A DNA stretch of 52,578 nt from a virus: IMG/VR virus record IMGVR_UViG_3300022918_000015, positions 1-52,578 of that record; one strand, written 5' to 3'. Below are positions 3,801-52,578 of this stretch, piece after piece. The notes below the pieces were generated by a model that searched no databases, was not told the DNA's origin, and saw only the letters and a program-made list of their open reading frames with translations. The position numbers were made by a program, and so were the translations under genes. The first letter of the stretch is position 1; each line of letters begins with the position of its first letter.

Positions 3801-6800
3801 GTTCCTAATAATCAAAAATATACTACTTTTAATAAAGAAATATTAATTGTAGATAAAAATAGATATGCCACAACAGCAGTTTTAAATGTTCTTGAAAATG
3901 ACATTAGTAAATTTGCTGAACAAATAAAAAAAGGAACTGGTAATAATACTTTAAATTATGGACATGAAATAGCAGATGCTCAAGGTTATATTACTCTTGA
4001 TTTCTATAAAAGAATTATATCTGGAACATACGGTTGGTCAAGCAAAGATAACGCTATATTTGAACGATTAAAAGATAAATCACATAAATATACCGATGAG
4101 GATATTAAATGGCTTAAATCGGCTGGTAGAAGCTTACAAGCCCTTAAATTAACTGGATTCAACCTCGAAGATATTCTAGACGAAAAAGATAATGTTATTG
4201 GTCAATTTCCAGTATATTTAAAATACTCAACAGCAGTATTAGCTCCAGCTATTATTGGAGGAACTGATTTAGAGAAATTAGTTAATCAAATGCAGATTCA
4301 AAATGTTGATCAGGTATTGTTTAAGTCAGGCTCTAAAGCATCTAACAAGCCAGCCACCACTATTTTCAATAAAGATGAAAATGGAATATTTACTGGCCTT
4401 AAAGATGATATGAATTTAAATCCATTTTTATTTAATTTATCAGGATTAAAACTACAAGTAGAATTACCAACTAAATTTGATCATGATGGAGTATTAGGTA
4501 ATCAGCATTTAAAAAACTTAATTGCTAATTTAGACTTAACTGATACAACTACTAAATATAAATGGAGAGATCAAGAATTTACAGCTAGTGAATTACAGAA
4601 TGAATATGATAACACCGTTAAAACAAATCTTCAATATCAATTAAATAATTTTATTGAAAAAATACAAATTAAAGATAAAACATTTGACCAAACTAAATTA
4701 AGAGAATTAATAGTAGATCAACTTGATGAAACAGCAGATGAAGATTTAATTGATATTTTACTAGATACAAGTTTACCACTTGAAACTATACCGGGTATAG
4801 CTCAAAGAGCTTTTCCCATTATATCTAGTTATATACATAAACACGTAGGAAAAGTTAGAACTAATGCTGGTTCTGCTATTCAAGTAGCTAATATAGGTTT
4901 TGACAGAATAGATAGTCCAGATGCCAATCAAATAGTATATCTTACAGAAGATAAAGAACTAAGACCTCCATTGTTAGTTACTAATACAGATGGTTCTAAG
5001 TCTATATCTAAAGCAAGAATCATGATGCCTTTTAGTTCTATTTACGAACAAACAGGTATGAGTTACGAAGATTTTAGAAAAGCATTTGCTTCAGGCAAAA
5101 TAGATAAAAGAATATTTGAAAACATTATAGGTTATCGTATTCCAAATCAAAGTATTTCATCTAATGACAGTATTGAAGTAGTTGGAATATTACCTCCAAG
5201 TATGGGAGATACGGCAATTGTGTATCATGAGATTACGGCTAAAACAGGTAGTGACTTTGATATCGATAAGATGTACTTGATGATGCCTAATTTCAAAATA
5301 GAAGAAAATGGTGAAATCAATTATATTGATGATGTTGAAACGCATAAAGGTCAACAGAATAAATTAATAGAATTGATGTCTAGTATTTTAACTAACACTA
5401 AAACATATGACGATTTAATCTCGCCGCTAGATAGCGATATACAAAAAGATGCGATTAATGAAGTCTTATACATTAAATCTATTTTAAATACAGAAGATTT
5501 TGAAGAGGAATTTAATAAATTTAAATCATTAAAAGGAAAATATAAAACTAAGTTTTTAAAATCATTCTCAGAAAAAAGAAAACTAGATCCTATTAGACAA
5601 TTATCACCAATGGGATTAGTTAAATCCAGAGTAGACATGTTGCAAGCTAAAAAACTAGTAGCAACTATGGCAAATCATATGACTGATATTCCTATGAGTC
5701 AAATAACAAATCAAGTATTTAAATATGATCTTAAAATAGATAGTTTTGAATTTAATAAAATGTTTACTTTAGGGCATGAAAATAACAATGAATACAAACT
5801 AACCAAAATAGTCAGTTACTTGATGAATGCTGCGGTGGATGCTGCGAAAGATAATTATATAATTGAGGGTAATTTCAATAGCTATACAGCTAACGGAGCT
5901 ATGCTAATGATTAGACTTGGTATAGAACCGGTAAATGTATTTAAAGTATTACTTAACGATGACGTATTAAAGCTTTCTAAAATGAAACAAATGCAGACTC
6001 AGAAAGTGGCTAGAATACAAGTAGATGATTACAAACAATCTTTACTTAATGAGTATTCAAGAGAATTAGTTAGTAATTTGCAAGAAAACAAAATAAACTT
6101 TAATGATTTCATACAAAAAAATGAAGATTTTAATTCTAAATTAGTATTAGGATTTTGGAATATAATTCAACTTGCAGGTAAAGAATTAAATAATGACATC
6201 GTCAGCTCTAAGAGTGATAGTAATGGAGCTGGTAAGAATATAGCTGAACATTCTACTCTGTATAATAGAATGGAAAGATTGTCTAAAGAATCAATTGGAA
6301 GTAATATAAATGAAAATTTTGTAAGAGGTAGAAAATTATTCAAATCAGGATTAGATTTAAATAATATAGAATTTAGACCTGAAATTACAGATGATATGAC
6401 ATTCTTAGGGGCTATGATGAATAATAGTTTATTCTTGACTAACTTTATAGCTAAAGAAATGTTTGTTGAAGCTACAGATAATTATAGATACATAGTAAAT
6501 AGAATATCAAACCAACTAGGTGAGCCTTTGCCAATTGCTGCTGACAATATAAAGTTAATAAGCAATCATGTCTATCCATATGTAATGTCTCAATCAGGAC
6601 ATGCATTATATAACATAGAAGAAGATCAAGTTGATTATATGACTAAAGAATTTTTATCTGAAGTAATAAGCAAAAAAGCTGCATTTCCAGATAACCTTAT
6701 GTTAAAGCAATTGTACGTAGATGCAAGTACTAATTTAATATCATTTCCAAATTATAAATATTTCGATACTAACTCTAAAATATTACTTAGAGAAGCAATG

Positions 6801-7637: not shown

Positions 7638-10600
7638 TGGCAGGAACATGTGTAAATAAATCAAGTGCTGAATTCATAGCATTAAAAGAACAAACAGGAA
7701 TAGATGAAGTTTTATTGGCAGCAAATGTTAGTATTTGGCAAGACGAAAACGGAATAGATAAATTTCCTACAGAAGAAGAGTTAAATAGTTTTTCTACAGA
7801 AGATGAAATATTATTCAATCAATATACTTCTACAGAAGATGCTATACAAAAATTCTATTCAACTAAAAGCGATAATAATACTTTATCTAGAAAACTTAAT
7901 TTAAATCTATCTGACAGAAGTGAAGATAGTATTAATATTACAGAACGCAAAATAGAAATATTAAAACAATCTTTAAATGCTGAGGTTTTAATAGATGCCA
8001 GTATTCCAGATTCAGGTCAGTTATTACCGGCTAATCATCCATTATCAAAAAGATATGGAAAACCTGTTATTGTAATAAATCCAAACAAGCTATTTTCAGA
8101 CACTGTAATTCACGAATTTGGACATTTGTATATTGACTTACTTAAAGAAGACGATGGTGTCTTAAATCAAGCGTATGGCTTGCTACGCAACACCGAATTC
8201 TACAGTAATATAGCAGCAGAATATCCAGAGTTAAGTTTAGTTGATTTAGATAAAGAGGTGTTAGCTACTGCAATAGGAATTGAGGGAGATAGAATATTTA
8301 ATAGAGATTTGCAGGATTTGTCTAATTGGCAAAAATTGAAAAACTGGATTTTAAATAAACTATCTTCTATATTCTCTGTTCAACCAAATGCTATTGAAAA
8401 ACTAGCAACTGAATTGCTTTCAAATCAAGTTAGAGTTTCCGGTGTTGAAAATTATAATACCATTATTACTCAAAGATCTAAATATAAAATAGATTCTGCT
8501 AGTTCTAATAAACAGCAAGATGTATTAGATTTATTTAAAAAATTAACTAAAGATTTTACAAAACAAACTGTTGATAATGAAAATATCTATATTGACAAAG
8601 AAGGAAATATTCACAATAATTCAGTAACCAAGAATATTAAACAATATCAAAGACGTTTTAACTCAAAAGATAAGGGTGATTATGAAATGGTATTTGACAG
8701 AACCTTATTTAATGTAGATAACATTGAATTTCAGTTAAATCAACCTAGAGTTCCAATGGCATTAACACGTGCGTTGAATGACTTTATGAATGAAAGAATA
8801 GTTTCTATTAGTTTTACTAAAGATGTTTCTGATAAAAACTGGTACGATGCTTATACAAGAGAAATTATAGAAGATGCAACTGGTGAAGTAGATGAAGTTC
8901 AACAAATGGAAGCTAATTTACTTTCTTCTCAAACAGGAGGAGCTATAACATTTAAAGCTAATATATTAAAACATTTAGATTTAATTTTAAATAGAGCTGA
9001 AGAATATCAGTTATCAGCTAATCAAAGACCTATTGTTGGACAGATAATTCACAATGCTTTAGAGAATTACATTAACGAAGAAACTCCATTTCCAAGCAAT
9101 ATATCAGATGAAGATAATGCATTATTAAATTCTATTAAAAATATAATAGATACAGGTATAGCTAATGGTAGTAGATTTGTTACTGAACAAATATTATATT
9201 CAGAAAATAAACAGATTCCAGGAACAGCAGATTTAATTGAAATAACAAAATCTGGTGAAGCTATTATTTATGATTTCAAAACAGTTAATAGTTTCTCAGG
9301 AAAAGATAAAGGAAATGAATATGAGAAAAAACCTCAATCACTTTATTTTGATAAAGGCTATATTCATCAACTACTTTCTTATGGAGCTATATTAAATCAA
9401 TACGATATTAATCTGGCAGATGATCCATATCATATTTTAATGGCTGAAGTTAAGTACTCTAACATAGAAGATTTAGATTCTACTATAACAATAGGTGAAG
9501 TTAGAAATACTTCAATGAGTTCTAAAGAATTATTACCTTTATTAAACTCAGCTAAAACAGCTATATTTAATGAATTTGCAACTAGTTCAGAACTAGAACA
9601 TATTAATATTAAGCCAGATATTCAGAATTTAAATGACTTATCTGAAAAAATTAATAGTGTTATTTCTATATATAAAAGACGAACTAGAAATATAGCAAGT
9701 AATCTTGACACGAGAGACATTGATCAAATACAAAAAGATTTAATTAAAAATCAAGATATAGAAGCAGATATTAATAAATACATTGCAAAAAATAACGAAG
9801 TAATTATTAACTCTTATGTAGATAACTTGTACAATTCATTATCTATTTTAGAACAACAAAAAGAATATATAGGAGAAGTTCCTACACCTGAATTTTTACA
9901 AAGCTTAAATTATGTATTACAATCTACTGAAGCTTTAGAAGATATAAAGAAAATACTTAGTGAAAATATTCCTTTTGAAGATAAAGATAAGTTATTAAAA
10001 ACCATAAATAAAACATTAAAAATAGTTGAAGAAAACAAAAAATACTATAAACAAAAACTACAACGTTTATCTATATCTCAACTTACTGAGAATAGTAATT
10101 TAATGCAAGGGTTATATGCTGAAAAATATCAAAGAGAAGCTAAAAAATTAGGAAAGAAAACTAAAGAAGAAATAACACTATATATAGAGCAAGAGTTAAA
10201 GAAAAATGAAACCATAATAAAAGTAAAAGAAATTCAATATTGGACCAAACAATATGAGGACGGATTTGCTGACTTAAGATTTCTTGAATACTTAATAGCG
10301 GATCCAGGTATGTCTAAATCTCAATTCGTTCAGTTAACTAAAAATATTTTAGATAAAGCAGATCAATCTACCAGAAATAAAATGATGGATGTTATTCCAG
10401 ATATAGCAAACTGGTACAATAATATTTCTTACGAAAAAACTGGAGATCCAAGAAAAGTGTGGGATAGGTTTCTAGAGAAAAATGCTAAAAACGACAATAA
10501 ACCAACAGGAGCGGTTATACCTGAATTTACAAGTAAATTTAGAGAAATGTTTCTTCAATATAGTTATCAATTAAAAGCACTATATAGAGAACTTAATAAA

Positions 10601-12874
10601 TTAAAAAATGCTCCTAAAACAGAATCTAATCAAAAATTAATTGAAGCTAAAAACGAACAAATTAAAGTATTAAAAAAAGAAAGACAGAAAACTATAAAAG
10701 AAAGAACCAGAGATGAAGATGATTTCAGAGATAGTTATATTCATCCTGATTTTGATAAATTAAACGATAAAGAAAAGGAAGATTTAAGATTTATACATAA
10801 AAATCTAACTGATGCAGATAATAGATTATATACAATACCTGAAAAGAAATTAACTCAAGAACTTGAAGACGGAACAATAATTTATAATCTTCCGAAAGAT
10901 AGAATGAGTGGTATTGAAGCAACTTATAAAGCAGGAGGAATTATTGGTACATTTAAGTCTAAGTTTGAAGACTTATTAAGACCGCCAGCAGATGAAGATA
11001 GTGAAAATATAACTAACCAAGAATATGGTTCAGAAAGTAAATTCGGAACTAATGAATTGGATGGATATGGGAATGAAGTATTTTCAGTTCCTGTTTACTA
11101 TAGAAATGATTTAGAAAATGATGAATTACAATCCTATGATATTCCTAGCTTACTAGCAATGAATCACGATACCACTATCACTTATGAAGAAAACAAACTA
11201 GTTGAAGCAGATTTATTTGTTATTGCAGAAAGTTTAAGTTCTAAAAACAATGACAAAATACTTAAAACAGATAGCTTTATTAACAGAAAAATACAAAACG
11301 CTGTTGGAAATAACTTTCAAAAATCTGATCAAAACTTAGTTTATCAAGCTGTAAAATCAAGTATAGATAACAGACTGTATAAACGTGCTTATAATGGAGT
11401 TTATTCAAAACAAAACTACCAGTTAATTAAAGGAGCTGAAGCAGTAAGTAAATATGCAAGTACTCTAGTTCTAGCTGGAAACTTTATGTCTGCTTTGTCT
11501 ACATTTACTCAAGGTAGTATTTATAGATTATTAGAGGCAAGTGTTGGAGAACATTTTACAATTACTGATTGGCAAAATGGAACTAAAAAAGCTTGGTTAG
11601 ATTTTCCAAACATGTTAAAAGATTCTCAAAAATATACTCCCGAAAGCAAAAGTGCATTATTGATTAAGAAATTTGGACTTGAAACACAATCACATGCTTT
11701 GACTAATAAATTTGTTCAGGATAATTTTGTAAAAAAACAATTAGACTCAGGTACTTTATTTTCAGTTACAAGTATGGCAGAAGCGGTTGTTACAAGTAAC
11801 TTGATGTACTCATTATTAAGCAACGTAAAGGTCACAAATGATAAAGGCGAATATATTAATCAAGAGGGAGAGAAAGTGTCTAAAAACGATGCTATGAGCC
11901 TTGACGAAGCATATACCGTAGTAGATGGTAAACTTGAATTAAATAAATTTGTAAAATACACAAGTTTTAATATTACAAGCAAATATAATGACGGTCAAAA
12001 TAAAGATAATACAATTGCAGCTACTGAGATATCAAGATACATAAGAAGCGTCTATGCTGATTTATATGGTCAATATAATCAAGATATGAAATCTGTTATG
12101 CAAAGAAATATTGCCGGTAAATTAATAATGAGTTTGAGGGGATGGTTGCCAAGAGGGGTTAACAGACGTTGGAGAGGTATTACGGATGCTATTGGTAAAG
12201 ATTTCATGAGTTTTGATGAATTAAGAGATGAAGCTAATATAGATAAAAGATTTTATTCTCAAGATCAAAAACAATTTCAAGAAGGACATTATACTACTAC
12301 TATTAGATTTATAAAGAGTTTAAGAAAACTAATGAAACAAAATCAAGAAGGATTATCTGCAAATAGAAAAACCTTAAGAGAATCTATGACAGATCATGAA
12401 ATAGCTAACTTAAAACGTACTCAGTACGAAATGGCTACGATGTTAATAATGATGGCTATGGCTATGTTGCTACGCACTATAGCAATGAGTTCTGAAGGAG
12501 ATGACAAGGATAAAGAAAAAATATATTTTGCAGCTTATTTAGCTTATAGAGTCCAAACAGAATTATCTACGTTTATATCACCTCCTGCTATGATGGAAAT
12601 GTTAACTAATCCAGCAGCAAGTATAAGTGTAGTGCAAAGAGTATTTGATTGGATGTGGCAATTAACTGGAGTAGCTTATTCTAAAGAAGAAGGTTGGGGA
12701 GTTAACATAAATGATGTTTATGATAAAGGAGATAAACAAGATGAAAGCAAAGCTTTACTTAAATCATATGGATTAGTTCCCTTTTATGTTAAAACAAACC
12801 AAATGAAAAGTATTCTAGGATTAGAAAGTAAAAATCCGATATCAGATTCATTTCAATACTCAATAAGTAAATAA
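7637..12874 (+). CDS. Giant virion protein with zincin-like and Cas4/RecB-like nuclease motifs
   Basis: The protein has 1,745 residues. An HEFGH zinc-protease motif lies at 159-163, with a downstream KEVLATAIG segment that could supply a third ligand. A PD-(D/E)XK-type nuclease signature follows: GQIIHNALE (H472), GTADLI (D532) and YDFKT (D546, K548). The middle is charged and helical. The C-terminal third holds hydrophobic stretches, notably about 1600-1617 (MLIMMAMAMLLRTIAM), which could insert in a membrane. Its place directly after the RNA polymerase fits the large cargo proteins of crAss-like virions, so it may be ejected with the polymerase to process host or phage molecules. The enzymatic roles are inferred from short motifs. 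Confidence 0.75.
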   Translation: MAGTCVNKSSAEFIALKEQTGIDEVLLAANVSIWQDENGIDKFPTEEELNSFSTEDEILFNQYTSTEDAIQKFYSTKSDNNTLSRKLNLNLSDRSEDSINITERKIEILKQSLNAEVLIDASIPDSGQLLPANHPLSKRYGKPVIVINPNKLFSDTVIHEFGHLYIDLLKEDDGVLNQAYGLLRNTEFYSNIAAEYPELSLVDLDKEVLATAIGIEGDRIFNRDLQDLSNWQKLKNWILNKLSSIFSVQPNAIEKLATELLSNQVRVSGVENYNTIITQRSKYKIDSASSNKQQDVLDLFKKLTKDFTKQTVDNENIYIDKEGNIHNNSVTKNIKQYQRRFNSKDKGDYEMVFDRTLFNVDNIEFQLNQPRVPMALTRALNDFMNERIVSISFTKDVSDKNWYDAYTREIIEDATGEVDEVQQMEANLLSSQTGGAITFKANILKHLDLILNRAEEYQLSANQRPIVGQIIHNALENYINEETPFPSNISDEDNALLNSIKNIIDTGIANGSRFVTEQILYSENKQIPGTADLIEITKSGEAIIYDFKTVNSFSGKDKGNEYEKKPQSLYFDKGYIHQLLSYGAILNQYDINLADDPYHILMAEVKYSNIEDLDSTITIGEVRNTSMSSKELLPLLNSAKTAIFNEFATSSELEHINIKPDIQNLNDLSEKINSVISIYKRRTRNIASNLDTRDIDQIQKDLIKNQDIEADINKYIAKNNEVIINSYVDNLYNSLSILEQQKEYIGEVPTPEFLQSLNYVLQSTEALEDIKKILSENIPFEDKDKLLKTINKTLKIVEENKKYYKQKLQRLSISQLTENSNLMQGLYAEKYQREAKKLGKKTKEEITLYIEQELKKNETIIKVKEIQYWTKQYEDGFADLRFLEYLIADPGMSKSQFVQLTKNILDKADQSTRNKMMDVIPDIANWYNNISYEKTGDPRKVWDRFLEKNAKNDNKPTGAVIPEFTSKFREMFLQYSYQLKALYRELNKLKNAPKTESNQKLIEAKNEQIKVLKKERQKTIKERTRDEDDFRDSYIHPDFDKLNDKEKEDLRFIHKNLTDADNRLYTIPEKKLTQELEDGTIIYNLPKDRMSGIEATYKAGGIIGTFKSKFEDLLRPPADEDSENITNQEYGSESKFGTNELDGYGNEVFSVPVYYRNDLENDELQSYDIPSLLAMNHDTTITYEENKLVEADLFVIAESLSSKNNDKILKTDSFINRKIQNAVGNNFQKSDQNLVYQAVKSSIDNRLYKRAYNGVYSKQNYQLIKGAEAVSKYASTLVLAGNFMSALSTFTQGSIYRLLEASVGEHFTITDWQNGTKKAWLDFPNMLKDSQKYTPESKSALLIKKFGLETQSHALTNKFVQDNFVKKQLDSGTLFSVTSMAEAVVTSNLMYSLLSNVKVTNDKGEYINQEGEKVSKNDAMSLDEAYTVVDGKLELNKFVKYTSFNITSKYNDGQNKDNTIAATEISRYIRSVYADLYGQYNQDMKSVMQRNIAGKLIMSLRGWLPRGVNRRWRGITDAIGKDFMSFDELRDEANIDKRFYSQDQKQFQEGHYTTTIRFIKSLRKLMKQNQEGLSANRKTLRESMTDHEIANLKRTQYEMATMLIMMAMAMLLRTIAMSSEGDDKDKEKIYFAAYLAYRVQTELSTFISPPAMMEMLTNPAASISVVQRVFDWMWQLTGVAYSKEEGWGVNINDVYDKGDKQDESKALLKSYGLVPFYVKTNQMKSILGLESKNPISDSFQYSISK

Positions 12875-12905
12875 CCAATTAAAGTAAAATTTTTTCAAAA
12901 ACAAT

Positions 12906-32760: not shown

Positions 32761-34116
32761 TTAATATCTATTATACATTTGTTCAACAACATACCAACCA
32801 CCAGAAGAAGCACAAAGCTCTTTTAGTCCAGGATTTTCTGTACCAAAGCATAATGCGTTAATTTTAACTCCCTTAGATTTGACCTCTTTAGGATTAACAT
32901 GATCATCTCCATCTAGCATGATTACAATCTCAGGATCGTGAAATGTAGTATCAGTAGCAATCTCATCAATAGTTTCTTGTAAACAATAACCAATATGAGT
33001 ACCACCACCACTAGGTCTTCTCAAGCTTATATCTTTAAATAAATCCTGAGCTTCTTTAAGGGTTTTAACTTCTTTATATCCATATCGTTTAGACTCATAT
33101 AAATAAAAGTTAAGTTTAGCCTTACCTTGCATTACTCCTTCGAGGTAATTCAATAAAGTAGCTCTAACATAAGATTGTTTTTGAATACTTCCCATTGAAC
33201 CAGAATCATCAAGCATTAATGTTACAACTTGCTTTCTTGTTTCAGGTAGTACCTTTTCTTTGATAGTTAATTCTTTTTTTGCAAGCTTATCATCAAAATT
33301 AGGCAATACCATTTGAGTCTTACTAGCCTTCATTACTTGACTATAACTAGACATATTTTTGATACGTTTCTTATTAGATTTATTGTTTTCAACTAACTTT
33401 GTTTCCAAAGAAGTTTCCATTCCAATTTTTTCTTCTAAATAAGTCTTAACTTTAATATCTCTTAATATACCAGGATTAATTGGCATATCAGGAACCTTCT
33501 CAGCAGCATATATATTAGCAATAGTTGGAGATAAATCATAAAGAAAATCTCTAACACATGAAATAACATCTTTTGATAAAGCTTGGTTAGAAGGTTTAGA
33601 TGAACTATCACCTCCATTATCATCAGGAACTCCTTTACTCATCTCTTTAATCAAATCAGATAATGATTGAGGATCTAAAGTAGTTTTACCGTTTCCTTTT
33701 GGATTTTGTTGAGCAGAATTAGTTTCATTAGACTTACTTAAATGCACCATGTACATCAAAGTATTTAATGTTTTATCCATTGGTGAATAACCTGGGCATT
33801 CTGGATAATTTAAACCTTCAAGAAACTTTAAAGTATATCCATAATAAGCTTTTTCAGACTCAGTCAATTCTCTATTCAATACCTCTTTACAAGTATCTAG
33901 TGAAAATACATGATTTTTAAAATCAAAATCAATACTTTCTTCTCTTTCTTGAGTAAATAAATAATATAAATCTTCTATGATTGGTGGGACTTTAATAAAG
34001 CCACCACCAAATTCATAGTTTTTATCACGAGCTAACTCGTTTATATAATCTAACTCAGGCAAAGTAATTGTATTAGTAAGGTTTATAGTAAACCCTTCTG
34101 TTCTTCCATTACTCAT
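32761..34116 (-). CDS. VWA-domain protein partner of the MoxR ATPase
   Basis: A 451-residue protein. The C-terminal domain (about 295-451) is a von Willebrand A domain with the MIDAS sequence DDSGS (D303-x-S305-x-S307), a GGGTHIG loop providing the threonine, and a later MLDGDD strand. The N-terminal 290 residues are helical with a Ser/Asn-rich linker. VWA proteins partner with MoxR-type AAA+ ATPases, here encoded 9 bases upstream, to remodel or assemble other complexes with metal-dependent binding. The target is unknown. Confidence 0.85.
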   Translation of the reverse strand: MSNGRTEGFTINLTNTITLPELDYINELARDKNYEFGGGFIKVPPIIEDLYYLFTQEREESIDFDFKNHVFSLDTCKEVLNRELTESEKAYYGYTLKFLEGLNYPECPGYSPMDKTLNTLMYMVHLSKSNETNSAQQNPKGNGKTTLDPQSLSDLIKEMSKGVPDDNGGDSSSKPSNQALSKDVISCVRDFLYDLSPTIANIYAAEKVPDMPINPGILRDIKVKTYLEEKIGMETSLETKLVENNKSNKKRIKNMSSYSQVMKASKTQMVLPNFDDKLAKKELTIKEKVLPETRKQVVTLMLDDSGSMGSIQKQSYVRATLLNYLEGVMQGKAKLNFYLYESKRYGYKEVKTLKEAQDLFKDISLRRPSGGGTHIGYCLQETIDEIATDTTFHDPEIVIMLDGDDHVNPKEVKSKGVKINALCFGTENPGLKELCASSGGWYVVEQMYNRY

Positions 34117-34125
34117 ATTTTCTTT

Positions 34126-35433
34126 TTATTTCTTTAATTGTTCAATTATTTCTTTAACTTCAGTCTTTTTCTTACCTGCTCTGTCCATATTTTTGGCAGA
34201 CCATTTATGAATATCCATCAATGAAACAACATATTTAAGCTTGTCCATTTTGATTGCAGCAGAAGTTTCATCAATCTCTACCTTAACATCTTCTCCTGTT
34301 CTTGATTTATGTTCTCCAATAATCAAGTCAAGCAATTTTGCATTAGTATCGATTTCTCCTAAATTATTATTTTTAACATAATCAGCAATCATTCTGAACA
34401 TTTCTTCATCAGCCGTTTCTTGTTCTTTATCTTTATTTTCTTTATAATACTTATTCAATATTTCTTTGTCAATATCATAAATATATTTCAAATCTCCACC
34501 ATCACAGTATAATTTTGCAGCGTGAATAGCCGTTCTCGGAGAAACAAAATGTGATTTATCATTCATTCCGTTATTGATAGATAAAATTTCAGATAACTCA
34601 ATAAGTTTACCTTTATTTCTATTGAAGAACGTATCTCCAAATACTTTTTTAAATAAACTTGTAAAATTATTTTTGCTATAAGAATCCCATTCTACTTTCA
34701 AAGTCAATGGAAAACGTTGTGCTAAGGCTTCTAAACTATCATCCTCAGAAAAATCTTCTTTAGACTTATTTGTAAGACCAATAAATATTTTAGTCTTACA
34801 AGGGTGTACTTGATTACCTTTTCTAGCTTTTTTAGATGTCATAACATCTTTAAGAGCCAATAGAACTTGTGGTGGAGCATCAAAGATTTCTTCAAATACA
34901 ACAACCTCATGTTCTAAAAAGCTATTTTTAAATAGATATTCTAATTCACCCGTATCTTTAAATTTCTTAATATTGATGCCGCCAAACAATCCTTCTTCAG
35001 TTAAACCGTCTCCACAAGTTAATACAAATGGTTCTTCTGTAATTAATCCTTCTTTTTTCATTAAGTTAAGAATCAATTCAGTACCTTCTGATTTATTATG
35101 ACCACCACGACCATACAAGATAACATTTTGATTAAGTCTCACACCTCTTGTAAGGGCATCTGCCATATCTTCCATGAATATAGATGATTTACATACTTCT
35201 GCAAGAATTTTTGCGTGAGTTGGATCGTAATTAGCTCCAGTGGCTACTTCAATCAAGTCTTTACTAATCTGAAAAGGATCTACCTTGAAATAACCTTGCT
35301 TTTGAATTTTTTCATATTCACTATCTGGAATAACTAAACTTAAGCCTTCAAGTAATTTATAATCTTGTTCTTCAATAACAGGAAATATTTGTTTTAAATC
35401 TACACTTTCAATACTTTTAAATACTATTTTCAT
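34126..35433 (-). CDS. MoxR-like AAA+ ATPase
   Basis: A 435-residue protein. The nucleotide-binding loop reads GRGGHNKS (108-115), with Asn in place of the usual Gly before Lys114. VVVFEE (177-182) is Walker B, a sensor-1-like IFIGLTNKS follows, and an arginine-finger-like ALAQRFP comes later. The order and the adjacent VWA gene identify the MoxR/CobS group. Such pairs act as chaperones or remodellers, for example in metal insertion or complex maturation. A conserved but altered P-loop raises the question of ATPase activity. Confidence 0.82.
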   Translation of the reverse strand: MKIVFKSIESVDLKQIFPVIEEQDYKLLEGLSLVIPDSEYEKIQKQGYFKVDPFQISKDLIEVATGANYDPTHAKILAEVCKSSIFMEDMADALTRGVRLNQNVILYGRGGHNKSEGTELILNLMKKEGLITEEPFVLTCGDGLTEEGLFGGINIKKFKDTGELEYLFKNSFLEHEVVVFEEIFDAPPQVLLALKDVMTSKKARKGNQVHPCKTKIFIGLTNKSKEDFSEDDSLEALAQRFPLTLKVEWDSYSKNNFTSLFKKVFGDTFFNRNKGKLIELSEILSINNGMNDKSHFVSPRTAIHAAKLYCDGGDLKYIYDIDKEILNKYYKENKDKEQETADEEMFRMIADYVKNNNLGEIDTNAKLLDLIIGEHKSRTGEDVKVEIDETSAAIKMDKLKYVVSLMDIHKWSAKNMDRAGKKKTEVKEIIEQLKK

Positions 35434-43386: not shown

Positions 43387-44166
43387 TTAAAAATTTGAAT
43401 ATCTAAAAAACAACCTTCTTAAACTTATTAAACTATAATCTATAGATTTTCCAATCATTAATATTATAATTTGCAAAGCTATTACTTCACCTTGAGAACC
43501 ATTCTTTTGATTGGTACCAATTAAATAACCTAATCCACCACTAGCAGTATTAATTAATTCTATTACTACAAGCATATTAAATATAATAGCAAGGTTTTGT
43601 CTTACAGCTTCAATAACAAAATCAAAACGACCCTTTATCATTACTTCAAGTATTATCTCCCAACGAGAACACCCTATACTTTTAGCATGATTAATTTCAT
43701 TTTCAATCGATTTCTTTGACAGACTCTGCAATAAACTTGTTATTAAAAATAAACTCATAAATATTACTAATACTGTTACCTGTATATTTCTTGCATTATG
43801 AATTATAATACTAATATATAAACTAATACCAACTAATGGCAAAAATCTAAACGTACTAATTAAATCACAAAATGGCTTAATAACAGGTAGAGGACTTAGG
43901 TATACTACTATACAAGAGATTATAACGCTATATAAACTAGCTTGTAAAAATAATAAGATCGAACTGGAAATATGGGTCATTAACCCTAAATTCCAGGCAC
44001 TAACAAAACCATTAAATACTTGCGTAATTGTTGGAAATAAATGTGTAGTGCCTACAAAACTAGAAATTACCCACCATCCCAGAATAAAAGTTAACCACAA
44101 GAGTATAACTAAATTATTCTGAGATTTGGATAACTCCTCAAAAGGTCTAAATAATTTATTTAGCAT
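43387..44166 (-). CDS. ABC transporter permease (nitrate/sulfonate/taurine-type)
   Basis: A 259-residue protein with about six hydrophobic spans (first at about 20-38, LVILLWLTFILGWWVISSF). The cytoplasmic ATPase-contact loop is visible at about 155-173 (ENEINHAKSIGCSRWEIIL), where a Gly at 165 matches the conserved EAA loop glycine. Late GGLGYLIG and a final span complete the BPD_transp_1 layout of SsuC/TauC-type permeases. It lies 15 bases downstream of the outer-membrane-like gene. Confidence 0.88.
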   Translation of the reverse strand: MLNKLFRPFEELSKSQNNLVILLWLTFILGWWVISSFVGTTHLFPTITQVFNGFVSAWNLGLMTHISSSILLFLQASLYSVIISCIVVYLSPLPVIKPFCDLISTFRFLPLVGISLYISIIIHNARNIQVTVLVIFMSLFLITSLLQSLSKKSIENEINHAKSIGCSRWEIILEVMIKGRFDFVIEAVRQNLAIIFNMLVVIELINTASGGLGYLIGTNQKNGSQGEVIALQIIILMIGKSIDYSLISLRRLFFRYSNF

Positions 44167-44181
44167 TTTTGAGATAACTAA

Positions 44182-44679
44182 TTAAAAACTATAACTAATA
44201 CTAGGAGACAAGTAATTAACTTCATCCCAGTTACTAAAACTAAGACCTATACTCACGTTTTCATGCGTATAACCAATTCCAACTCCAACTTCTGTAAAAT
44301 AATCATCAGATCCAAAATATCCGCCTGCACCTGCAATTAGGCTACCAGTTAAATTTCCCACTAATTTATAATTTGGTGAAATTTTAGCTTCCCAGAAATA
44401 ATTAGTAATCTGATCTTTGTCAAAAACATCAACTAGATTACTTCTTCCAAATACAGCTCCATAAGAGATGTTATTGCAAGTAACACCACCTTCTACTGTG
44501 GCATATGAATTTTCTTGCCAATCTCCTTGAAGATGCATAGATAATCCAAGACTCACATAATGAGTAAGTGTATTTACAGATTTAGTTTCTACAACATCCA
44601 CTTGAGGTTGTTCAATTGTTTGAGCATTCATGCTCATTGCTCCTAAGAACAACATTCCTACGATTAAGAATTTTTTCAT
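44182..44679 (-). CDS. Secreted putative outer-membrane barrel protein
   Basis: A 165-residue protein with a Bacteroidota-type signal peptide (MKKFLIVGMLFLGAMSMNAQ, cut after NAQ). The mature part has alternating strands (SNLVDVFDKDQITNYFWEAK; YVSLGLSMHLQGDW; VGIGYTHENVSIGLSF) and ends in aromatic ISYSF, a typical outer-membrane barrel end. At about 145 residues, it could be a small barrel. It is the first gene of the permease-ATPase part, so it might be the outer-membrane entry point of the importer. Confidence 0.72.
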   Translation of the reverse strand: MKKFLIVGMLFLGAMSMNAQTIEQPQVDVVETKSVNTLTHYVSLGLSMHLQGDWQENSYATVEGGVTCNNISYGAVFGRSNLVDVFDKDQITNYFWEAKISPNYKLVGNLTGSLIAGAGGYFGSDDYFTEVGVGIGYTHENVSIGLSFSNWDEVNYLSPSISYSF

Positions 44680-44887: not shown

Positions 44888-45163
44888 TTATAATTTATAA
44901 TGTAATTTATTATTGATAAAATAATTATAATTATCTAATAGAAATCTTTTTCTACATTTAACAGTAGTAGCTTTATAATTTCCAAGATACCAATTACCAT
45001 TTTTATCTAGAATAGCTTTGCTTACATGGTTAAAACATAAATTATTATTAAATATATAAAAATCTTTTTCATTAAAATAAGAAGATTCTCTAAATTTAAA
45101 ATTATGTTCTTTATGATGTAAATAATATAATACTAATCCTGTTATAATAATAAATATATACAT
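44888..45163 (-). CDS. Small single-pass membrane protein
   Basis: A 91-residue protein: one N-terminal span (MYIFIIITGLVLYYLH) and then a soluble, basic, aromatic part (FYIFNNNLCFNHVSKAILD; ATTVKCRKRFLLDNYNYF). Its start is coupled to the stop of the solute-binding-OmpA gene by a 1-base overlap. It is the last gene before the RNA-containing spacer at 44680-44887. Function unknown. Confidence 0.6.
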   Translation of the reverse strand: MYIFIIITGLVLYYLHHKEHNFKFRESSYFNEKDFYIFNNNLCFNHVSKAILDKNGNWYLGNYKATTVKCRKRFLLDNYNYFINNKLHYKL

Positions 45164-47001
45164 TATTTTAAAAGAGTTACTTGAACCCTTCTGTTTTTAT
45201 ACCTACCTTCAGCTGTATTATTATTGCCAATAGGTTTTTTATCTCCCAATCCTTCTACAGATTCAACTGCTTGGAATGGTAAACCTTGATTTTGCAAATA
45301 CTCTAGTACAGCGTTAGCTCTAGATTTAGATAAAATTTGATTTTGATCAGGATTACCGGTATTATCAGTATGGCCTTCAATAATGATTTTAGTTCCCTCA
45401 GCTTGAACAATTAAATTGTATAATTCTTTAAGTTGTTTATCGCTTGAATGCAATATCTCCGAACTACCTGAATTAAAATTGATTTGCCAGCTTCCAGATG
45501 CCATTACAGACGTTAACTTTTTAGAATAGTCTACTTGTTTCACTTCACCTGAATTAATACCTGAAATCGCTTGTAATGACGTCAAATCAACTGCTTTATC
45601 ATAAGGAGTAACTTTTTTAACAGCATCACTGAATCCATTTGGATTAAGATCTGTCAAATAATTAGCAACTTGTTCATAAACAGATTTGTATCTATTAATT
45701 CCATCATCACCTAATCCATAATATTGCAAAGCATCTGCATGATTCATAATTCTAGTACCACCAGCAATTTGACCATTACTTAAAGTTTTACCTTTAAACA
45801 TTTCATACCAATATTGAGGAGATTGATAACCGTAAGTTTTAGCAACACATTGTGAAGCTTTAACTCTCCAATCATCATATAACTTCATTTGATTAGCAGC
45901 AGTATAAGTAGCTTTCAAAATATTAACAACCACGTCTGGGTTAGCATCAGACCATTCTTTTAAGACTATTAAAGTTGTAGTCATTTGATTAGGAAAATCT
46001 TTAGTAGAAGATATAGTTACTGCGTGAGGAACTTTATCAAATATCATTTTATCTCCAGGCAACCAAGTACTACATAAATCAATTTTTCTAGATACAGTCT
46101 TACCTGTTGGCTTACCATCTTTAAGTTCTTTCATGTCATAAACCTTTCCATTTAATTGAGATGCAATATAATCATTTGCACATTCAATAATATTTGGATT
46201 ATGAATAAAGTTTACAGCTTCTGGATCATACGTACCGATGTTTGGATTTACTTTAATACCTTTATTAGCAAATATATAATTCAATGCTACAACCCAGTCA
46301 CCGTCTCCTACAGCAGTTACGATAACAGCTCCTTTAAGATTAGCCGGATTATCAATATATTTTTTATCTCCAATAAGTTTATCTTCTCCATAACTAGCTC
46401 CATAACAAGCCTTAACTACAGCGTGATATTTATCTTCACCAAATTTATCGTCAAGCATTTTATTTAATGTTGATATAAAATAAGGAGCGCCATCACCCAT
46501 AATACTTACTCCGAATGCACTAGTATTGCTTTGTGGATTTAAATTCCCTGAATCAAATTCAGCAGTAAAATTAACCATAGCAGCTTGTAATAGACTAAAA
46601 TCATCCTGACGTCCTATATTAAGATTTACACCATATTTTTCCATTAAACTATTTTCAGAAGTTTGAGGACCGCCATTAGCTACAATCATAGTACTATTAC
46701 CATTCCAAGTATACTCAAGTAAATTATACTTAGTTTTACTTTTTACTTTAGTTGATAAACTGTTTCCTGGCAAATCGATTTTATCTGCTTTAGAAGCGTT
46801 ATCAATTACGGTTCCATCAATTTCCAAATCATTACCTGTAGTAGATTTTAGAAAGTTCATTCCGGGGGCAAAAAAGGCTACTGCTAAATAAGCTATAACG
46901 ATAATAGCTATTACACCCAATACTTTAAGTGTATTACGACCTTTGGGAGTTAGGTTATCCCACCAACTTGTTTTTGTTTGATTTTGATTAAAATTTTCCA
47001 T
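45163..47001 (-). CDS. Membrane-anchored solute-binding protein fused to a C-terminal OmpA domain
   Basis: A 612-residue protein. Residues 26-46 (KVLGVIAIIVIAYLAVAFFA) form an N-terminal membrane anchor. Residues about 70-490 look like a periplasmic solute-binding domain of the NMT1/PstS/nitrate type (MIVANGGPQTSENSLMEKYG, then QAAMVNFTAEF; AVIVTAVGDGDW; TTTLIVLKEW). Residues 497-612 are an OmpA/MotB peptidoglycan-binding domain: FNSGSSEIL, GHTDNTG (543-549) and GRYKNRRV (599-606). This would fix a captured-solute receptor between inner membrane and cell wall, serving the permease and ATPase encoded below. Confidence 0.85.
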   Translation of the reverse strand: MENFNQNQTKTSWWDNLTPKGRNTLKVLGVIAIIVIAYLAVAFFAPGMNFLKSTTGNDLEIDGTVIDNASKADKIDLPGNSLSTKVKSKTKYNLLEYTWNGNSTMIVANGGPQTSENSLMEKYGVNLNIGRQDDFSLLQAAMVNFTAEFDSGNLNPQSNTSAFGVSIMGDGAPYFISTLNKMLDDKFGEDKYHAVVKACYGASYGEDKLIGDKKYIDNPANLKGAVIVTAVGDGDWVVALNYIFANKGIKVNPNIGTYDPEAVNFIHNPNIIECANDYIASQLNGKVYDMKELKDGKPTGKTVSRKIDLCSTWLPGDKMIFDKVPHAVTISSTKDFPNQMTTTLIVLKEWSDANPDVVVNILKATYTAANQMKLYDDWRVKASQCVAKTYGYQSPQYWYEMFKGKTLSNGQIAGGTRIMNHADALQYYGLGDDGINRYKSVYEQVANYLTDLNPNGFSDAVKKVTPYDKAVDLTSLQAISGINSGEVKQVDYSKKLTSVMASGSWQINFNSGSSEILHSSDKQLKELYNLIVQAEGTKIIIEGHTDNTGNPDQNQILSKSRANAVLEYLQNQGLPFQAVESVEGLGDKKPIGNNNTAEGRYKNRRVQVTLLK

Positions 47002-47032: not shown

Positions 47033-48154
47033 TTAAAATATTCCTCCAATTCCACCTGTAGCGTCTTTTTCTTCAGCCGTAAGTTTCAAATCAGGATTAT
47101 TAAATCGTTTAGCACTAGGAATAATATCAGTACCAGCTTTAATATTGGCTACTAATTTATCCAATTGATTGAAAGACTTACTAGGGTCACCAATATTGAT
47201 ATTACCCATAGCGTCTTTAATATCTTGTAAGTTGTTTTTAGTTGTAGCAATATTATTTGCAATAGCACCTAACACTACTTCAGAAGCGAATTGAACTTCC
47301 CATTTATCATTAAAGTTTAATACATTTTTAACAGCATCTGTTCCAGCTCTCATTGCGCTAGTAGCTTCAAAATCATTCTTAAGTATCTGAACTGTTGAGT
47401 CAAAATTCTTAACACGATTTTTGAGATAACTAACAAAATATTTATACTGAGTCTCAAACTTAGTAAATACACTAGCTCTGGTTCCGAATTGAGTAATCAG
47501 ATCTTTAGCTTGTTCATAGTTCATTTCAACACGTTGATATTCCATAGCCAAATCATTTCGTTGAATACACAAATCAGCATACTCAGGATCTTCTTTAGAT
47601 TCTTCTGTAGTAAACTTTTCTATTTCTGTATTTAATTTAACAGCTTCTTCAGATATTTCAATTAATCTATCTTGATATTTTTTAGCGTCAAGTTGATTTT
47701 TAGTAGCATTAGATTTCATAGTCTCTTTACTTTGAGATATAATAGTACCAGCTCCAACAGCATCTTCATATTGTTGTACCAATTCTACTCTTTGTTCTCT
47801 AAATGCTCCAAAAGGATCATTAGTTATCCAAAATTCATGAAACTTACGAATCATAGACTTTACAATACCTTTTAATGGTTTTCTACAAGCATAGATTAAT
47901 AGAATGCTACCAACTATTGCCACAACTTGTCCAATTAGATAAAATCCTGCTGCCAATCCAGCTATAAAAGGTAATAAGATAGTCCATACAACATATCCAA
48001 TACCAATTAATCCAAGTATTCGTACTATGTTAAATACAGGTTTTTCACCTTTTTTCCATTCTTGCGGTATTAATTGTATTTCACTACTGTCAATACCGTT
48101 AAACAAAGGTAATCTACTTATCTTTGTTTGTGCGATCTGTTTAAAGTCACTCAT
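47033..48154 (-). CDS. Two-pass membrane protein with long coiled coil
   Basis: A 373-residue protein. Membrane spans lie at about 42-66 (FNIVRILGLIGIGYVVWTIL) and about 68-90 (AAGFYLIGQVVAIVGSILLI). A long coiled coil follows, about 140-310, and the C-terminus is glycine-rich (EKDATGGIGGIF). The coiled-coil part resembles PspA/toxic-anion-resistance-type proteins in amino-acid texture only. It lies 31 bases upstream of the solute-binding-OmpA gene and probably acts with it at the inner membrane. Confidence 0.65.
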   Translation of the reverse strand: MSDFKQIAQTKISRLPLFNGIDSSEIQLIPQEWKKGEKPVFNIVRILGLIGIGYVVWTILLPFIAGLAAGFYLIGQVVAIVGSILLIYACRKPLKGIVKSMIRKFHEFWITNDPFGAFREQRVELVQQYEDAVGAGTIISQSKETMKSNATKNQLDAKKYQDRLIEISEEAVKLNTEIEKFTTEESKEDPEYADLCIQRNDLAMEYQRVEMNYEQAKDLITQFGTRASVFTKFETQYKYFVSYLKNRVKNFDSTVQILKNDFEATSAMRAGTDAVKNVLNFNDKWEVQFASEVVLGAIANNIATTKNNLQDIKDAMGNINIGDPSKSFNQLDKLVANIKAGTDIIPSAKRFNNPDLKLTAEEKDATGGIGGIF

Positions 48155-48183: not shown

Positions 48184-48396
48184 TTATTTTTCGTCTTTTT
48201 TATTGTAAAACAATGTATGCATTAATGCTGCAAACATTATCATCAATCCAATCCAACTAAGTATTGTCATAACTACAGTCGTTCTTTTGTCTTGAGGTTC
48301 ATGTGCATCTACGTGGTTTCTAAGTAAAGCACATATTACAAACATTACTGCGCATCCGGTTAAATAACACCAGAATAAATCAAATAAGCTTATCAT
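48184..48396 (-). CDS. Small two-pass membrane protein
   Basis: A 70-residue protein: spans at about 5-24 (FDLFWCYLTGCAVMFVICAL) and about 40-60 (TVVMTILSWIGLMIMFAALM), linked by a His/Asp-rich turn (RNHVDAHEPQDKR). The C-terminus is basic. It sits between the two coiled-coil genes, 4 and 29 bases from its neighbours, so is probably part of the same membrane assembly. Confidence 0.62.
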   Translation of the reverse strand: MISLFDLFWCYLTGCAVMFVICALLRNHVDAHEPQDKRTTVVMTILSWIGLMIMFAALMHTLFYNKKDEK

Positions 48397-48400
48397 ATTT

Positions 48401-49102
48401 TTATAAATTGTTTTTAATATTATTTTGAACTTTGTTTATTTTATCCATTAATTCACTATATGCTATTTGATTGGCTCCTGATTTAAGTTTAATTTCTCTA
48501 ACTTGAGGATCAAATTTCTCATTAATAGTTGTTAATTGTAATTCTGCTTCAGATATTTTTCTTTTTAATTCACTAATAGTAGCAATTAATGAAGATTCTG
48601 TACTAGACCATTGTGACTTAACTTGTTCAAGTTTGTTTTCTCCTTGCTTTTTAAGTTGATTAAAATTATCCATTAAGGTCTTAGCATACTGATTTGCTTG
48701 AGTATCTAATACTTCTTTAGTAAGATTACCAGAAGTCATTGACAAAGCCATTTTAAGAGCTTCTGCTGATTCTAAATTACCAAACTTACTTAGACCTTGA
48801 AATATCTCAAAGAAGTCTACATCGGGCTTATTTAGCTTTGTAAACTGATCATTATAGGCTTTTCTAAGTTGATCTAAATAAGGATTAATTTCATCTTTAA
48901 AACCTTGAGATTCTTGTTTAAAATCAATAGCTGGTTCTGGAAATCCCATTATCTTAGACTCTTCTTTAGATTCGGGATCAAAAAAAGTAGGCGCTGGATT
49001 TCTTGAAGGGAAAGTTGTTTTTGGATTTTCAACAAAAGGTTTATTTTCTTGAGTTGTTTCATCTGGTTTAACAAAACCCATATTTTGTAAAAAACTTTTC
49101 AT
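48401..49102 (-). CDS. Soluble coiled-coil protein of the envelope block
   Basis: A 233-residue protein. The first 70 residues are proline-rich and flexible (NPKTTFPSRNPAPTFFDPE); the rest is helical, with a coiled coil from about 140 to 230 (QYAKTLMDNFNQLKKQGENK; ELKRKISEAELQLTTINEK). It lies 4 bases above the two-pass membrane gene. It may bind the membrane coiled-coil protein encoded just downstream, by analogy in length and composition. Confidence 0.62.
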   Translation of the reverse strand: MKSFLQNMGFVKPDETTQENKPFVENPKTTFPSRNPAPTFFDPESKEESKIMGFPEPAIDFKQESQGFKDEINPYLDQLRKAYNDQFTKLNKPDVDFFEIFQGLSKFGNLESAEALKMALSMTSGNLTKEVLDTQANQYAKTLMDNFNQLKKQGENKLEQVKSQWSSTESSLIATISELKRKISEAELQLTTINEKFDPQVREIKLKSGANQIAYSELMDKINKVQNNIKNNL

Positions 49103-51506: not shown

Positions 51507-52578
51507 TTATTCTTTATAGATTTTTAGAGTATACTTTTCTTCTTTATTGTAAATCTTAATTATATAAATACCTTTTGGTAAGTTAGATAAATCGTGATTA
51601 TTTTTATTTAATTCTTGACCTAATATATTATAAACATTAAATTCATAATCTCTTATATTAGATATAATTAACTGATCATTATATATAAATGCTTTAACTG
51701 TCAAGTTGTTGATAATAACTGTTTGATTTAAATTATTATAACCTGTACTTTCTTCCCAAGTATTTTCATTAGCACATCTAATTGAATAAATAGGATTTGT
51801 AGGTATATCAATATCAGGTAAGTTTAAATATAATCTATAGTTTCCATTAGGTAAATTATTGTTAATAACATGATAAATTAAGCTACCGTTTACAACATCG
51901 CATTGCCAAAAGTTAGGATCTGTATTTAGTAATATGCTAAATTCCTGACCAGTTGCAATATTTTTATAAACAATATAAGCCTTTCTATCATTAACAAGAT
52001 TACCAAATCCTTTATTCTCTAGAGTAATAGAAATAGCATTGTTATTTATATAACTATTAAGTAATACAAATCTATATCCTAATCTATTAATTATCTCGCT
52101 TTTACAGTTATTTACTTGCCAATTATTCCAAACATCAGGATGATAAGACATATTTAAATAATTAAAATGAAATCTTTCCAATGTTAATAAAGCATTACTA
52201 CAATCTGTGCTTGGTGATATTAATCCACATGATTCTCCACCAGCAATAGTAAATCTCGTTTGACTATCTAAATATGAATATTCATTTGTTGTATTAGTAA
52301 ATCCTTCCCAACCTGTTCTTAAGAAACAATCATTATGATAACTCATCCTAGAAGCATTACTATTATTATACGCCTGTTCATTTGTTATAGCATTATTTCC
52401 TGTAATACTTCTCATTATACTTGGAGTTCTAAAAGCTATATTTCTTTTAGGACATAATTCAAATATTTTATTACCAATTTCAATTCTATTAGCTAATTGT
52501 GTAGCAGTTAAATTATCAGTATTGCCATAATTTGAACTATCATACCACTCACCATACTCACCTATAAATCCAGCTTCT
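51507..52578 (-). CDS. DUF4832-like secreted protein with T9SS C-terminal domain, 5' end cut off
   Basis: The frame is open to the right edge, so the start lies beyond the window; the ATG at 52415 is internal. The edge segment contains GFIGEYGEWYDSSNYG, recalling DUF4832/DUF4874 proteins (putative TIM-barrel glycoside-hydrolase-like). A beta-sandwich-like region follows, and the last 75 residues form a type IX secretion sorting domain (YNILGQEL, then LSNLPKGIYIIKIYN). In Bacteroidota such domains direct export across the outer membrane. In a phage it suggests a secreted carbohydrate-active or surface-modifying protein; the enzyme activity is inferred. Confidence 0.75.
   Translation of the reverse strand, partial: EAGFIGEYGEWYDSSNYGNTDNLTATQLANRIEIGNKIFELCPKRNIAFRTPSIMRSITGNNAITNEQAYNNSNASRMSYHNDCFLRTGWEGFTNTTNEYSYLDSQTRFTIAGGESCGLISPSTDCSNALLTLERFHFNYLNMSYHPDVWNNWQVNNCKSEIINRLGYRFVLLNSYINNNAISITLENKGFGNLVNDRKAYIVYKNIATGQEFSILLNTDPNFWQCDVVNGSLIYHVINNNLPNGNYRLYLNLPDIDIPTNPIYSIRCANENTWEESTGYNNLNQTVIINNLTVKAFIYNDQLIISNIRDYEFNVYNILGQELNKNNHDLSNLPKGIYIIKIYNKEEKYTLKIYKE

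What the first reader, a model, noticed from the sequence alone, without database searches (positions are those of the whole stretch)
45163..47001. Fusion of a solute receptor to an OmpA peptidoglycan-binding domain
The receptor has its own membrane helix and a wall-binding end with GHTDNTG and GRYKNRRV motifs. A receptor bridging membrane and wall may act as a sensor or a scaffold rather than a simple importer component. The protein is the longest in the envelope block.
Basis: partly seen in the sequence, partly recalled or inferred. Interest (0 to 1): 0.7.

Follow-up and report, generated by a model that had tools for sequence, protein, structure and literature searches.

The report
Huge-phage envelope transporter with PspA-like partner
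A very large bacterial virus carries a five-gene set that appears to build, in the infected cell's envelope, an ABC transporter whose receptor is tied to the cell wall and travels with a membrane-repair-like (PspA/ESCRT-III-like) protein; bacteria have the same set, and distantly related giant phages keep it together.

Summary
In detail: the 612-aa protein (45163-47001, minus) is a membrane-anchored, two-lobed NitT/TauT-type solute receptor fused to an OmpA peptidoglycan-binding domain (pLDDT 91.3; TauA Z 25.1; OmpA domain Z 19.2). It is one of five genes kept in one order: coiled-coil protein, membrane-anchored coiled-coil protein (TMC), SBP-OmpA, ABC permease, ABC ATPase. The full block is in 64 of 70 IMG/VR contigs with differing flanks, in two Lak genomes read, in the 735-kb and 462-kb huge phages, and rearranged in Bacillus phage G. 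Bacteroidota and Spirochaetota carry it on chromosomes. TMC is a remote PspA/Vipp1 (ESCRT-III superfamily) homologue: reciprocal profile hits, hhalign 96% against 6% for a coiled-coil control, but below Pfam's cut-off. The bacterial operon is in print (Ravi et al. 2024, PMC11237479); I found no account of the phage version. Best reading: a phage-borne envelope machine in which a wall-tethered receptor and ABC importer work with a PspA-like membrane polymer, probably to keep or remodel the inner membrane of the infected cell. Ligand and function are untested; plain nutrient import is the main rival. New variant of a known kind.

The parts
45163..47001 (-). SBP-OmpA receptor, 612 aa: membrane helix about 19-45, disordered link 45-68, two-lobed NitT/TauT-like binding protein 89-478, OmpA peptidoglycan-binding domain 498-612
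   Evidence: ORF; PF00691; model; fold matches; hydropathy
47033..48154 (-). TMC, 373 aa: two membrane helices (46-64, 69-87) then long helical hairpin (cytoplasmic by inference); remote PspA/Vipp1 (ESCRT-III superfamily) homologue by way of its relatives
48401..49102 (-). COI, 233 aa: soluble coiled-coil protein, first gene of the block, no known family
43387..44166 (-). ABC permease, 259 aa, BPD_transp_1 (TauC/SsuC-like), six predicted membrane helices
42360..43172 (-). ABC ATPase, 270 aa, Walker A, signature, Walker B, D-loop and H-loop all present
44182..44679 (-). 165-aa protein with signal-like start and beta-barrel-like look (by eye), inserted between receptor and permease; relatives in five other loci, in or just upstream of the block. 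Accessory, only in close relatives
   Evidence: cluster f26
48184..48396 (-). 70-aa ORF with two hydrophobic stretches (by eye) between COI and TMC; no counterpart sought, gene status unsure

Best explanation
It is the phage-borne version of a bacterial five-gene envelope operon. SHOWN by sequence or model: a receptor with a membrane helix, a two-lobed NitT/TauT-type binding domain and a peptidoglycan-binding end; a matching type I ABC permease and ATPase with intact motifs; a membrane-anchored protein remotely homologous to PspA/Vipp1; a soluble coiled-coil protein; all five kept in one order. INFERRED: the receptor sits in the inner membrane and holds the wall; ligand binding (or wall strain) sets the ATPase cycle of the permease; the PspA-like protein polymerises on the inner face of the membrane beside the transporter, with the coiled-coil protein as regulator or adaptor; the whole keeps the inner membrane tight, or reshapes it, in a cell that makes a giant phage. 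Import of the (unknown) ligand and membrane upkeep would be coupled, as Ravi et al. 2024 suggest for the bacterial operon.
For: Five-gene block in the same order and strand in 64 of 70 distinct IMG/VR contigs, with flanking genes that differ between groups (three of the six exceptions end at a contig edge), in L001-L003 and L007, and on 46 of 80 bacterial loci. TMC profile hits Vipp1/PspA in the PDB at E about 1e-5 starting at its one nearly invariant motif, DP; PF04012 is the family matched by most TMC members, 8 of 44, best E 1.1e-4. Reciprocal whole-genome hits: the TMC profile finds canonical PspA in three genomes at E about 1e-8, and PF04012 finds TMC in four genomes. hhalign TMC against 31 PspA rows 96.3% (E 1.7e-9, 192 columns), COI control 6.2%. 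OmpA Asp/Arg pair D546/R561 and receptor motifs S203, G205, D207, P315, D317 kept in 99-100% of 103 rows. dN/dS 0.01-0.45 over eight phage pairs and five genes. Bacterial operon reported by Ravi et al. (PMC11237479, section 18 read).
Against: No function, ligand, expression or interaction has been tested. TMC never passes Pfam's PspA cut-off in what I saw (33.1 bits against 33.9 at best), the window-clade TMC rows alone do not match PspA (4.4%), a designed coiled coil scores as well as Vipp1 in the PDB search (8qae), and the fold searches of its model are not decisive. The phage loci lack the AAA+ ATPase that goes with the bacterial operon (0 of 77 viral loci), so polymer turnover would need a host ATPase or none. 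A normal importer is not excluded.
Confidence: 0.5

Rival explanations
1. Auxiliary metabolic importer: the block simply imports a small solute (sulfonate, nitrate/bicarbonate-like anion, pyrimidine or another NitT/TauT ligand) that limits phage production; wall tether and coiled coils only position it.
For: Nearest folds are TauA, CmpA, SsuA, NrtA, HMP/thiamine-type binding proteins; permease nearest SaoP/TauC/SsuC models; ATPase and receptor motifs intact.
Against: A plain importer of this family needs no PspA-like and coiled-coil partners, yet these are kept with it in 64 of 70 contigs; no gene family beyond the five recurs beside the block across the phage groups.
Confidence: 0.3
2. Superinfection exclusion or counter-defence: the membrane-wall bridge and PspA-like coat guard the inner membrane against DNA entry or holins of rival phages, or against abortive defences that depolarise the membrane.
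For: Al-Shayeb et al. 2020 note that huge phages encode membrane and surface proteins that may affect susceptibility to other phages (one passage seen). OmpA part resembles ZorB/MotB-type domains in PADLOC, as any such domain would.
Against: The same block sits in bacterial genomes beside genes such as an AAA+ ATPase and a 2OG-Fe dioxygenase; no PADLOC family beyond shared domains.
Confidence: 0.12
3. Passenger host operon picked up by chance, or host contamination of viral contigs, with no role for the phage.
For: The bacterial operon exists and is 50-62% identical in the receptor domain to some viral copies; the labels need at least three changes by starred branches.
Against: Many phage groups with different flanks keep all five genes; strong purifying selection; the window lies in a 32-row all-phage clade; receptor present in all 15 Lak records and in isolated phage G.
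Confidence: 0.05

Closest known systems
Bacterial operons of PspA / Snf7-with-TM plus AAA+ ATPase, ABC ATPase, permease and PBPB-OmpA protein (Ravi et al. 2024, PMC11237479, section 18 read in full)
   Same: Receptor-OmpA fusion, ABC permease and ATPase, membrane-anchored PspA/Snf7-like coiled coil; in my bacterial sample also the same gene order (46 of 80 loci).
   Different: Theirs are bacterial (the words virus and bacteriophage do not occur). The phage loci lack the AAA+ ATPase (0 of 77); the window clade has a larger receptor (about 600-614 aa against mostly 500-555 in bacteria).
NitT/TauT-type ABC importers (TauABC, SsuABC, CmpABCD, NrtABCD)
   Same: Receptor fold, permease family, ATPase family.
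   Different: Known receptors are free, lipid-anchored or, in CmpC/NrtC, a like domain is fused to the ATPase (partly recalled); none in the hits has a membrane helix plus OmpA domain.
Phage shock / PspA-Vipp1 (ESCRT-III) systems
   Same: Long helical hairpin in the model, beginning near a DP motif; profile-level homology.
   Different: Membrane helices precede the hairpin; partner set is a transporter, not PspBC/PspF (recalled); below Pfam cut-off.
pspA-like gene beside terD in Jug huge phages (PMC12363816, one passage seen)
   Same: A PspA-like gene in a huge gut phage of Bacteroidota.
   Different: No transporter or OmpA named in that text (find: transporter 0, OmpA 0).
Inner-membrane proteins with OmpA-type wall anchors (MotB, long TssL)
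   Same: One membrane helix plus a C-terminal wall-binding domain (profile hits).
   Different: They carry no solute-binding domain and drive motors or secretion (recalled).

Membership tests
OmpA C-terminal peptidoglycan-binding domain (PF00691) | Profile score above the curated cut-off | tested here: met
   75.6 bits against 27.2
OmpA C-terminal peptidoglycan-binding domain (PF00691) | Asp/Arg pair 15 residues apart that holds diaminopimelate (positions recalled from A. baumannii OmpA) | tested here: met
   D546 and R561 in the window; 0.99 and 1.0 of 103 rows
NitT/TauT (NMT1-like) solute-binding proteins | Two-lobed fold of TauA/SsuA/CmpA | tested here: met
   TauA Z 25.1, rmsd 3.9, 291 aligned; CmpA Z 23.6, rmsd 4.0, 336 aligned; SsuA Z 23.0, rmsd 3.1, 285 aligned
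NitT/TauT (NMT1-like) solute-binding proteins | Pfam NMT1/NMT1_2 score above cut-off | tested here: not met
   No hit for the window protein; met by relatives L003, L005, L054. I describe it by fold and kinship, not as a member of this profile
NitT/TauT (NMT1-like) solute-binding proteins | Binds a small solute in the cleft | not testable with these tools
   No assay; motif conservation only
Type I ABC importer | BPD_transp_1 permease and ABC_tran ATPase above cut-offs, ATPase motifs intact | tested here: met
   34.3 against 26.4 and 88.6 against 25 bits; all five motifs in the window, each in 53-60 of 60 phage rows by regular expression
PspA/IM30 family (PF04012) | Pfam score above the curated cut-off (33.9 bits) | tested here: not met
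   8 of 44 members match at E up to 0.05, best 1.1e-4; best genome hit 33.1 bits; window's own protein has no hit
PspA/Vipp1/ESCRT-III superfamily | Remote sequence homology over the hairpin and beyond | tested here: met
   Reciprocal profile hits, hhalign 96.3% against COI control 6.2%; window-clade rows linked by way of other TMC rows (99.7%)
PspA/Vipp1/ESCRT-III superfamily | Hairpin alpha1-alpha2/3 with solved-structure match | tested here: inconclusive
   Model has helices 116-179, 190-279, 285-317 (pLDDT 77.6, pTM 0.53); Vipp1 7o3w rank 3 at E 0.054, not significant; VIA list filled by generic coiled coils
PspA/Vipp1/ESCRT-III superfamily | Forms membrane-remodelling polymers | not testable with these tools
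   Needs protein
Bacterial PspA/Snf7-TM + ABC + PBPB-OmpA operon (Ravi et al. 2024) | ABC ATPase, permease, PBPB-OmpA, TM-bearing PspA/Snf7-like gene together | tested here: met
   their example OGG56892.1 was not compared directly
Bacterial PspA/Snf7-TM + ABC + PBPB-OmpA operon (Ravi et al. 2024) | AAA+ ATPase in the operon | tested here: not met
   AAA+ of the downstream kind found in 25 of 80 bacterial loci and 0 of 77 viral loci; so the phage block works like it but is a variant. Whether this AAA+ is the one Ravi et al. mean was not tested

The most novel reading that the evidence does not exclude
Several lineages of the largest phages carry their own 'phage shock' machine: a PspA/ESCRT-III-like membrane polymer driven or gated by a wall-tethered ABC transporter, which they use to hold together or reshape the inner membrane of the infected cell. 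The kind of system that bacteria switch on under phage-made membrane damage would here be carried by the phage.
Probability: 0.35. Interest if true: 0.85.

Novelty: new variant of a known kind. Interest (0 to 1): 0.62.

Why it matters
A five-gene block that keeps its order while its flanking genes change, in huge phages whose records name hosts as far apart as Prevotella and Bacillus megaterium, points to a shared need of some very large phages that is not replication or packaging. If the PspA-like reading holds, it makes testable how a huge phage keeps its host's membrane alive during infection, and it gives an isolated model (phage G) for a bacterial operon that, as far as I found, has only been described from sequence.

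Tried and rejected
Rejected: host contamination or a chance ORF. Rejected: membership in PF04012 as such (cut-off not met). Tried without gain: a first viral scan with the single protein (nothing confirmed); a first genome scan with the L006 receptor (nothing confirmed); plasmids (108 records, none covering 80% of the query, so no fusion seen there); DNA-level search of window 1-12900 in phages (no match); promoter and terminator scan (65 promoter-like sites against 55.1 expected, 3 terminator-like against 1.9, uninformative); PADLOC (only shared domains); COI against PDB and Pfam (generic coiled coils only). A first hhalign with 14 PspA rows gave 84.7%; the 31-row set gave 96.3%. VIA-align of TMC lists no PspA/Vipp1 among the 50 rows shown, which excludes nothing.

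Against universality: three named records over 630 kb gave no SBP-OmpA hit in the protein searches: LR756502 (642 kb), LR756504 (636 kb), LR745206 (635 kb) (with lengths; nine rows were not listed, but that call counts only three 'uncultured' records and all three are listed; searches list all their hits). So the block is not general to megaphages. Bacterial copies are also rare: TMC in 5 of 148 Bacteroidota genomes drawn (centre included) and 4 of 149 Spirochaetota (centre included).

Literature: searches (one search failed on a sign in the term). The claim that the phage version is not in print rests on these searches of open-access full texts and on 'find' passages in PMC7162821 and PMC8346664; subscription papers were not seen. 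PMC9239133 was seen in passages only.

Full report
WHAT THE WINDOW IS. The window is a whole 52,578-base IMG/VR virus record, 24-31% G+C in 2-kb steps. It encodes phage-type primase, DnaB-like helicase, Sak4-like annealing protein and exonuclease VIII (PHROGs), DNA ligase and dUTPase (Pfam), and a protein ending in a weak (26.6 bits, cut-off 27) Por secretion tail, which hints at a Bacteroidota host. The nearest named relative of the receptor is in LR756500, a 462-kb uncultured phage (49.3% identity over 93% of the protein).

THE PROTEIN. The 612-aa ORF is confirmed. AlphaFold2 on a 52-row alignment (A6) gives pLDDT 91.3 and pTM 0.86: a membrane helix, a disordered link at 45-68, a binding-protein part from about 89 to 478 and a C-terminal OmpA part. 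Foldseek and VIA-align 2 place the middle with TauA, CmpA, SsuA and NrtA and the end with TagL/OmpA peptidoglycan-binding domains. Over 103 rows, S203, G205, D207 and P315 are at 1.0, D317 at 0.99 and W313 at 0.94; in the OmpA part D546 is at 0.99, and G543, G549 and R561 at 1.0. D546 and R561 correspond to the pair that holds diaminopimelate in A. baumannii OmpA (recalled).

THE BLOCK. Profiles of the five proteins were built from four seed loci and iterated over loci fetched with the receptor. The receptor is there by construction; the other four genes are the test. In 64 of 70 distinct IMG/VR contigs the order COI-TMC-SBP-permease-ATPase is complete on one strand (the 70 come from 56 loci and 25, of which 11 repeat a contig). 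The six others: L016, L021 and L063 lie at a contig edge, L154 has no recognised ATPase, L060 and L061 match only by the OmpA part. The flanking genes share few families beyond close relatives. Of these 70 contigs 22 are 200 kb or longer (lengths). Among 50,697 phage records, the receptor of the 735-kb phage finds 20 with at least 80% cover: LR756501 and LR756503, 15 Lak records, two records of Bacillus phage G, and the 38-kb fragment MT835556; LR756500 is added. Gene order was read in L001 (LR756500), L002 and L007 (two of the 15 Lak records) and L003 (LR756501); a TMC relative was found in all 15 Lak records. In phage G the permease is gp243, the ATPase gp245, and two receptors follow (gp249, gp250); gp246 and gp247 look like COI and TMC by start motif, membrane helix and position, but do not reach the profiles, while the equivalents in MT835556 do weakly (E about 1e-5 and 2e-6 in a small set). 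The block is under purifying selection: 40 gene-by-pair estimates of dN/dS run from 0.01 to 0.45.

THE PspA LINK. The only nearly invariant columns of TMC are D113-P114 of the window protein. A TMC profile finds Vipp1 (8qhx, E 1.1e-5) and sll0617 (7o3w, E 2.7e-5) in the PDB, aligned from that DP motif; a designed coiled coil scores as well (8qae, E 1.5e-5), so this alone is not proof. PF04012 is the family matched by most TMC members, 8 of 44, best E 1.1e-4. In 148 Bacteroidota genomes the TMC profile at E 1e-8 finds five genomes with TMC and three more in which the hit is the canonical PspA-family gene (G016, G021, G063). PF04012 in turn hits TMC in G004, G050 and G085 (places overlap) and in G005 (by my coordinate arithmetic with L092). 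hhalign of TMC with 31 PspA-family rows gives 96.3%, the coiled-coil COI control 6.2%; the 13 window-clade rows alone give 4.4%, but match the other TMC rows at 99.7%. Fold searches of the TMC model are not decisive. I read TMC as a remote, membrane-anchored member of the PspA/ESCRT-III superfamily, not as a PF04012 member.

BACTERIA AND HISTORY. A genome scan with the receptor domain gave 365 confirmed loci, of which the best 80 were kept: mostly Bacteroidota, some Spirochaetota and a few MAGs under other names, including Aquimarina and Tenacibaculum isolates on contigs of up to 1.5 Mb. Of these 80, 46 have the full ordered block; many of the rest are short contigs. In 25 of 80 an AAA+ gene (Pfam AAA and AAA_lid_6; CbxX/SpoVK-like by eye) lies in the locus, in 19 cases directly after the ABC ATPase. 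No viral locus has it. In a tree of 103 rows (60 phage, 43 bacterial; 118 rows had all three genes used, 15 bacterial near-copies were dropped, and a list of duplicate or near-identical viral loci before that) the window lies in a 32-row all-phage clade (SH-aLRT 100); phage and bacteria need five label changes, three forced by starred branches. The bacterial rows lie close together, but they were chosen by similarity to one viral subgroup, so direction of transfer cannot be told.

LITERATURE. After the block had been worked out I found that Ravi et al. 2024 (PMC11237479; section 18 read in full, other passages by find) report bacterial operons of PspA and Snf7-with-TM genes with AAA+ ATPase, ABC ATPase, permease and a PBPB-OmpA protein, and suggest a link between membrane remodelling and solute transport. 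Viruses are not mentioned there (find: virus 0, bacteriophage 0). The hairpin as the superfamily's hallmark is from PMC8281802 (passages). A huge gut phage preprint names a pspA-like gene beside terD (PMC12363816, one passage). No paper on a phage-borne block turned up in the searches listed under Tried and rejected.

HOW IT PROBABLY WORKS. See Best explanation for what is shown and what is inferred. The weight is on envelope upkeep coupled to import, because the PspA-like and coiled-coil genes stay with the transporter in 64 of 70 phage contigs while no other gene family recurs beside it across the groups.

VERDICT. Observation confirmed; interpretation partly supported; the bacterial operon is known, the phage version appears unreported in what I could search; function open.

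Noticed in passing
window 44182-44679 (-); relatives in L008, L009, L010, L025, L031: A small secreted, outer-membrane-like protein (by eye) sits between receptor and permease and recurs in or just upstream of the block in five close relatives: a possible sixth part in this clade.
   Followed up: partly
L021: Possible chimeric block: receptor of the window clade (48% identity) with a TMC only 15% identical to the window's, of the bacterial type in the alignment: partners may be swapped.
   Followed up: no
L005 8992-12197: Bacillus phage G has two tandem receptor-OmpA genes (gp249, gp250) for one permease and one ATPase, and its host is Gram-positive.
   Followed up: partly
L001 1238-2377, L002 6195-7331, L007 (f33): A class II aldolase-domain protein lies upstream of the block in LR756500 and directly upstream in the two Lak phages read (L007 by cluster only).
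   Followed up: partly
L002 16195-17331: Lak-A2 encodes a peptide chain release factor (PCRF and RF-1 domains) a few genes after the block, in a stretch whose frames are longer with TAG read as Q.
   Followed up: partly
L036, L049, L060, L061, L152: Further viral contigs whose long-ORF coverage rises by over 12 points when TAG is read as Q.
   Followed up: no
window 32761-35433 (-): A MoxR-type AAA ATPase (PF20030) next to a protein with a DDSGSMGS motif, von Willebrand A-like by eye: a possible MoxR-vWA pair in the phage.
   Followed up: partly
window 810-12874 (+): Two giant proteins (2275 and 1745 aa) with no PHROG or Pfam hit; the first has a GSDFDIDKMY motif that recalls the crAss-like phage RNA polymerase (recalled, not tested).
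   Followed up: partly
window 51507-52577 (-): DUF4832 protein with a weak type IX secretion tail match, cut by the window's end: perhaps a phage protein made for the host's T9SS.
   Followed up: partly
bacterial loci, e.g. L079, L139 permease: Bacterial permeases of the block are often 320-446 aa against about 260 in phages, suggesting an extra domain lost or gained.
   Followed up: no
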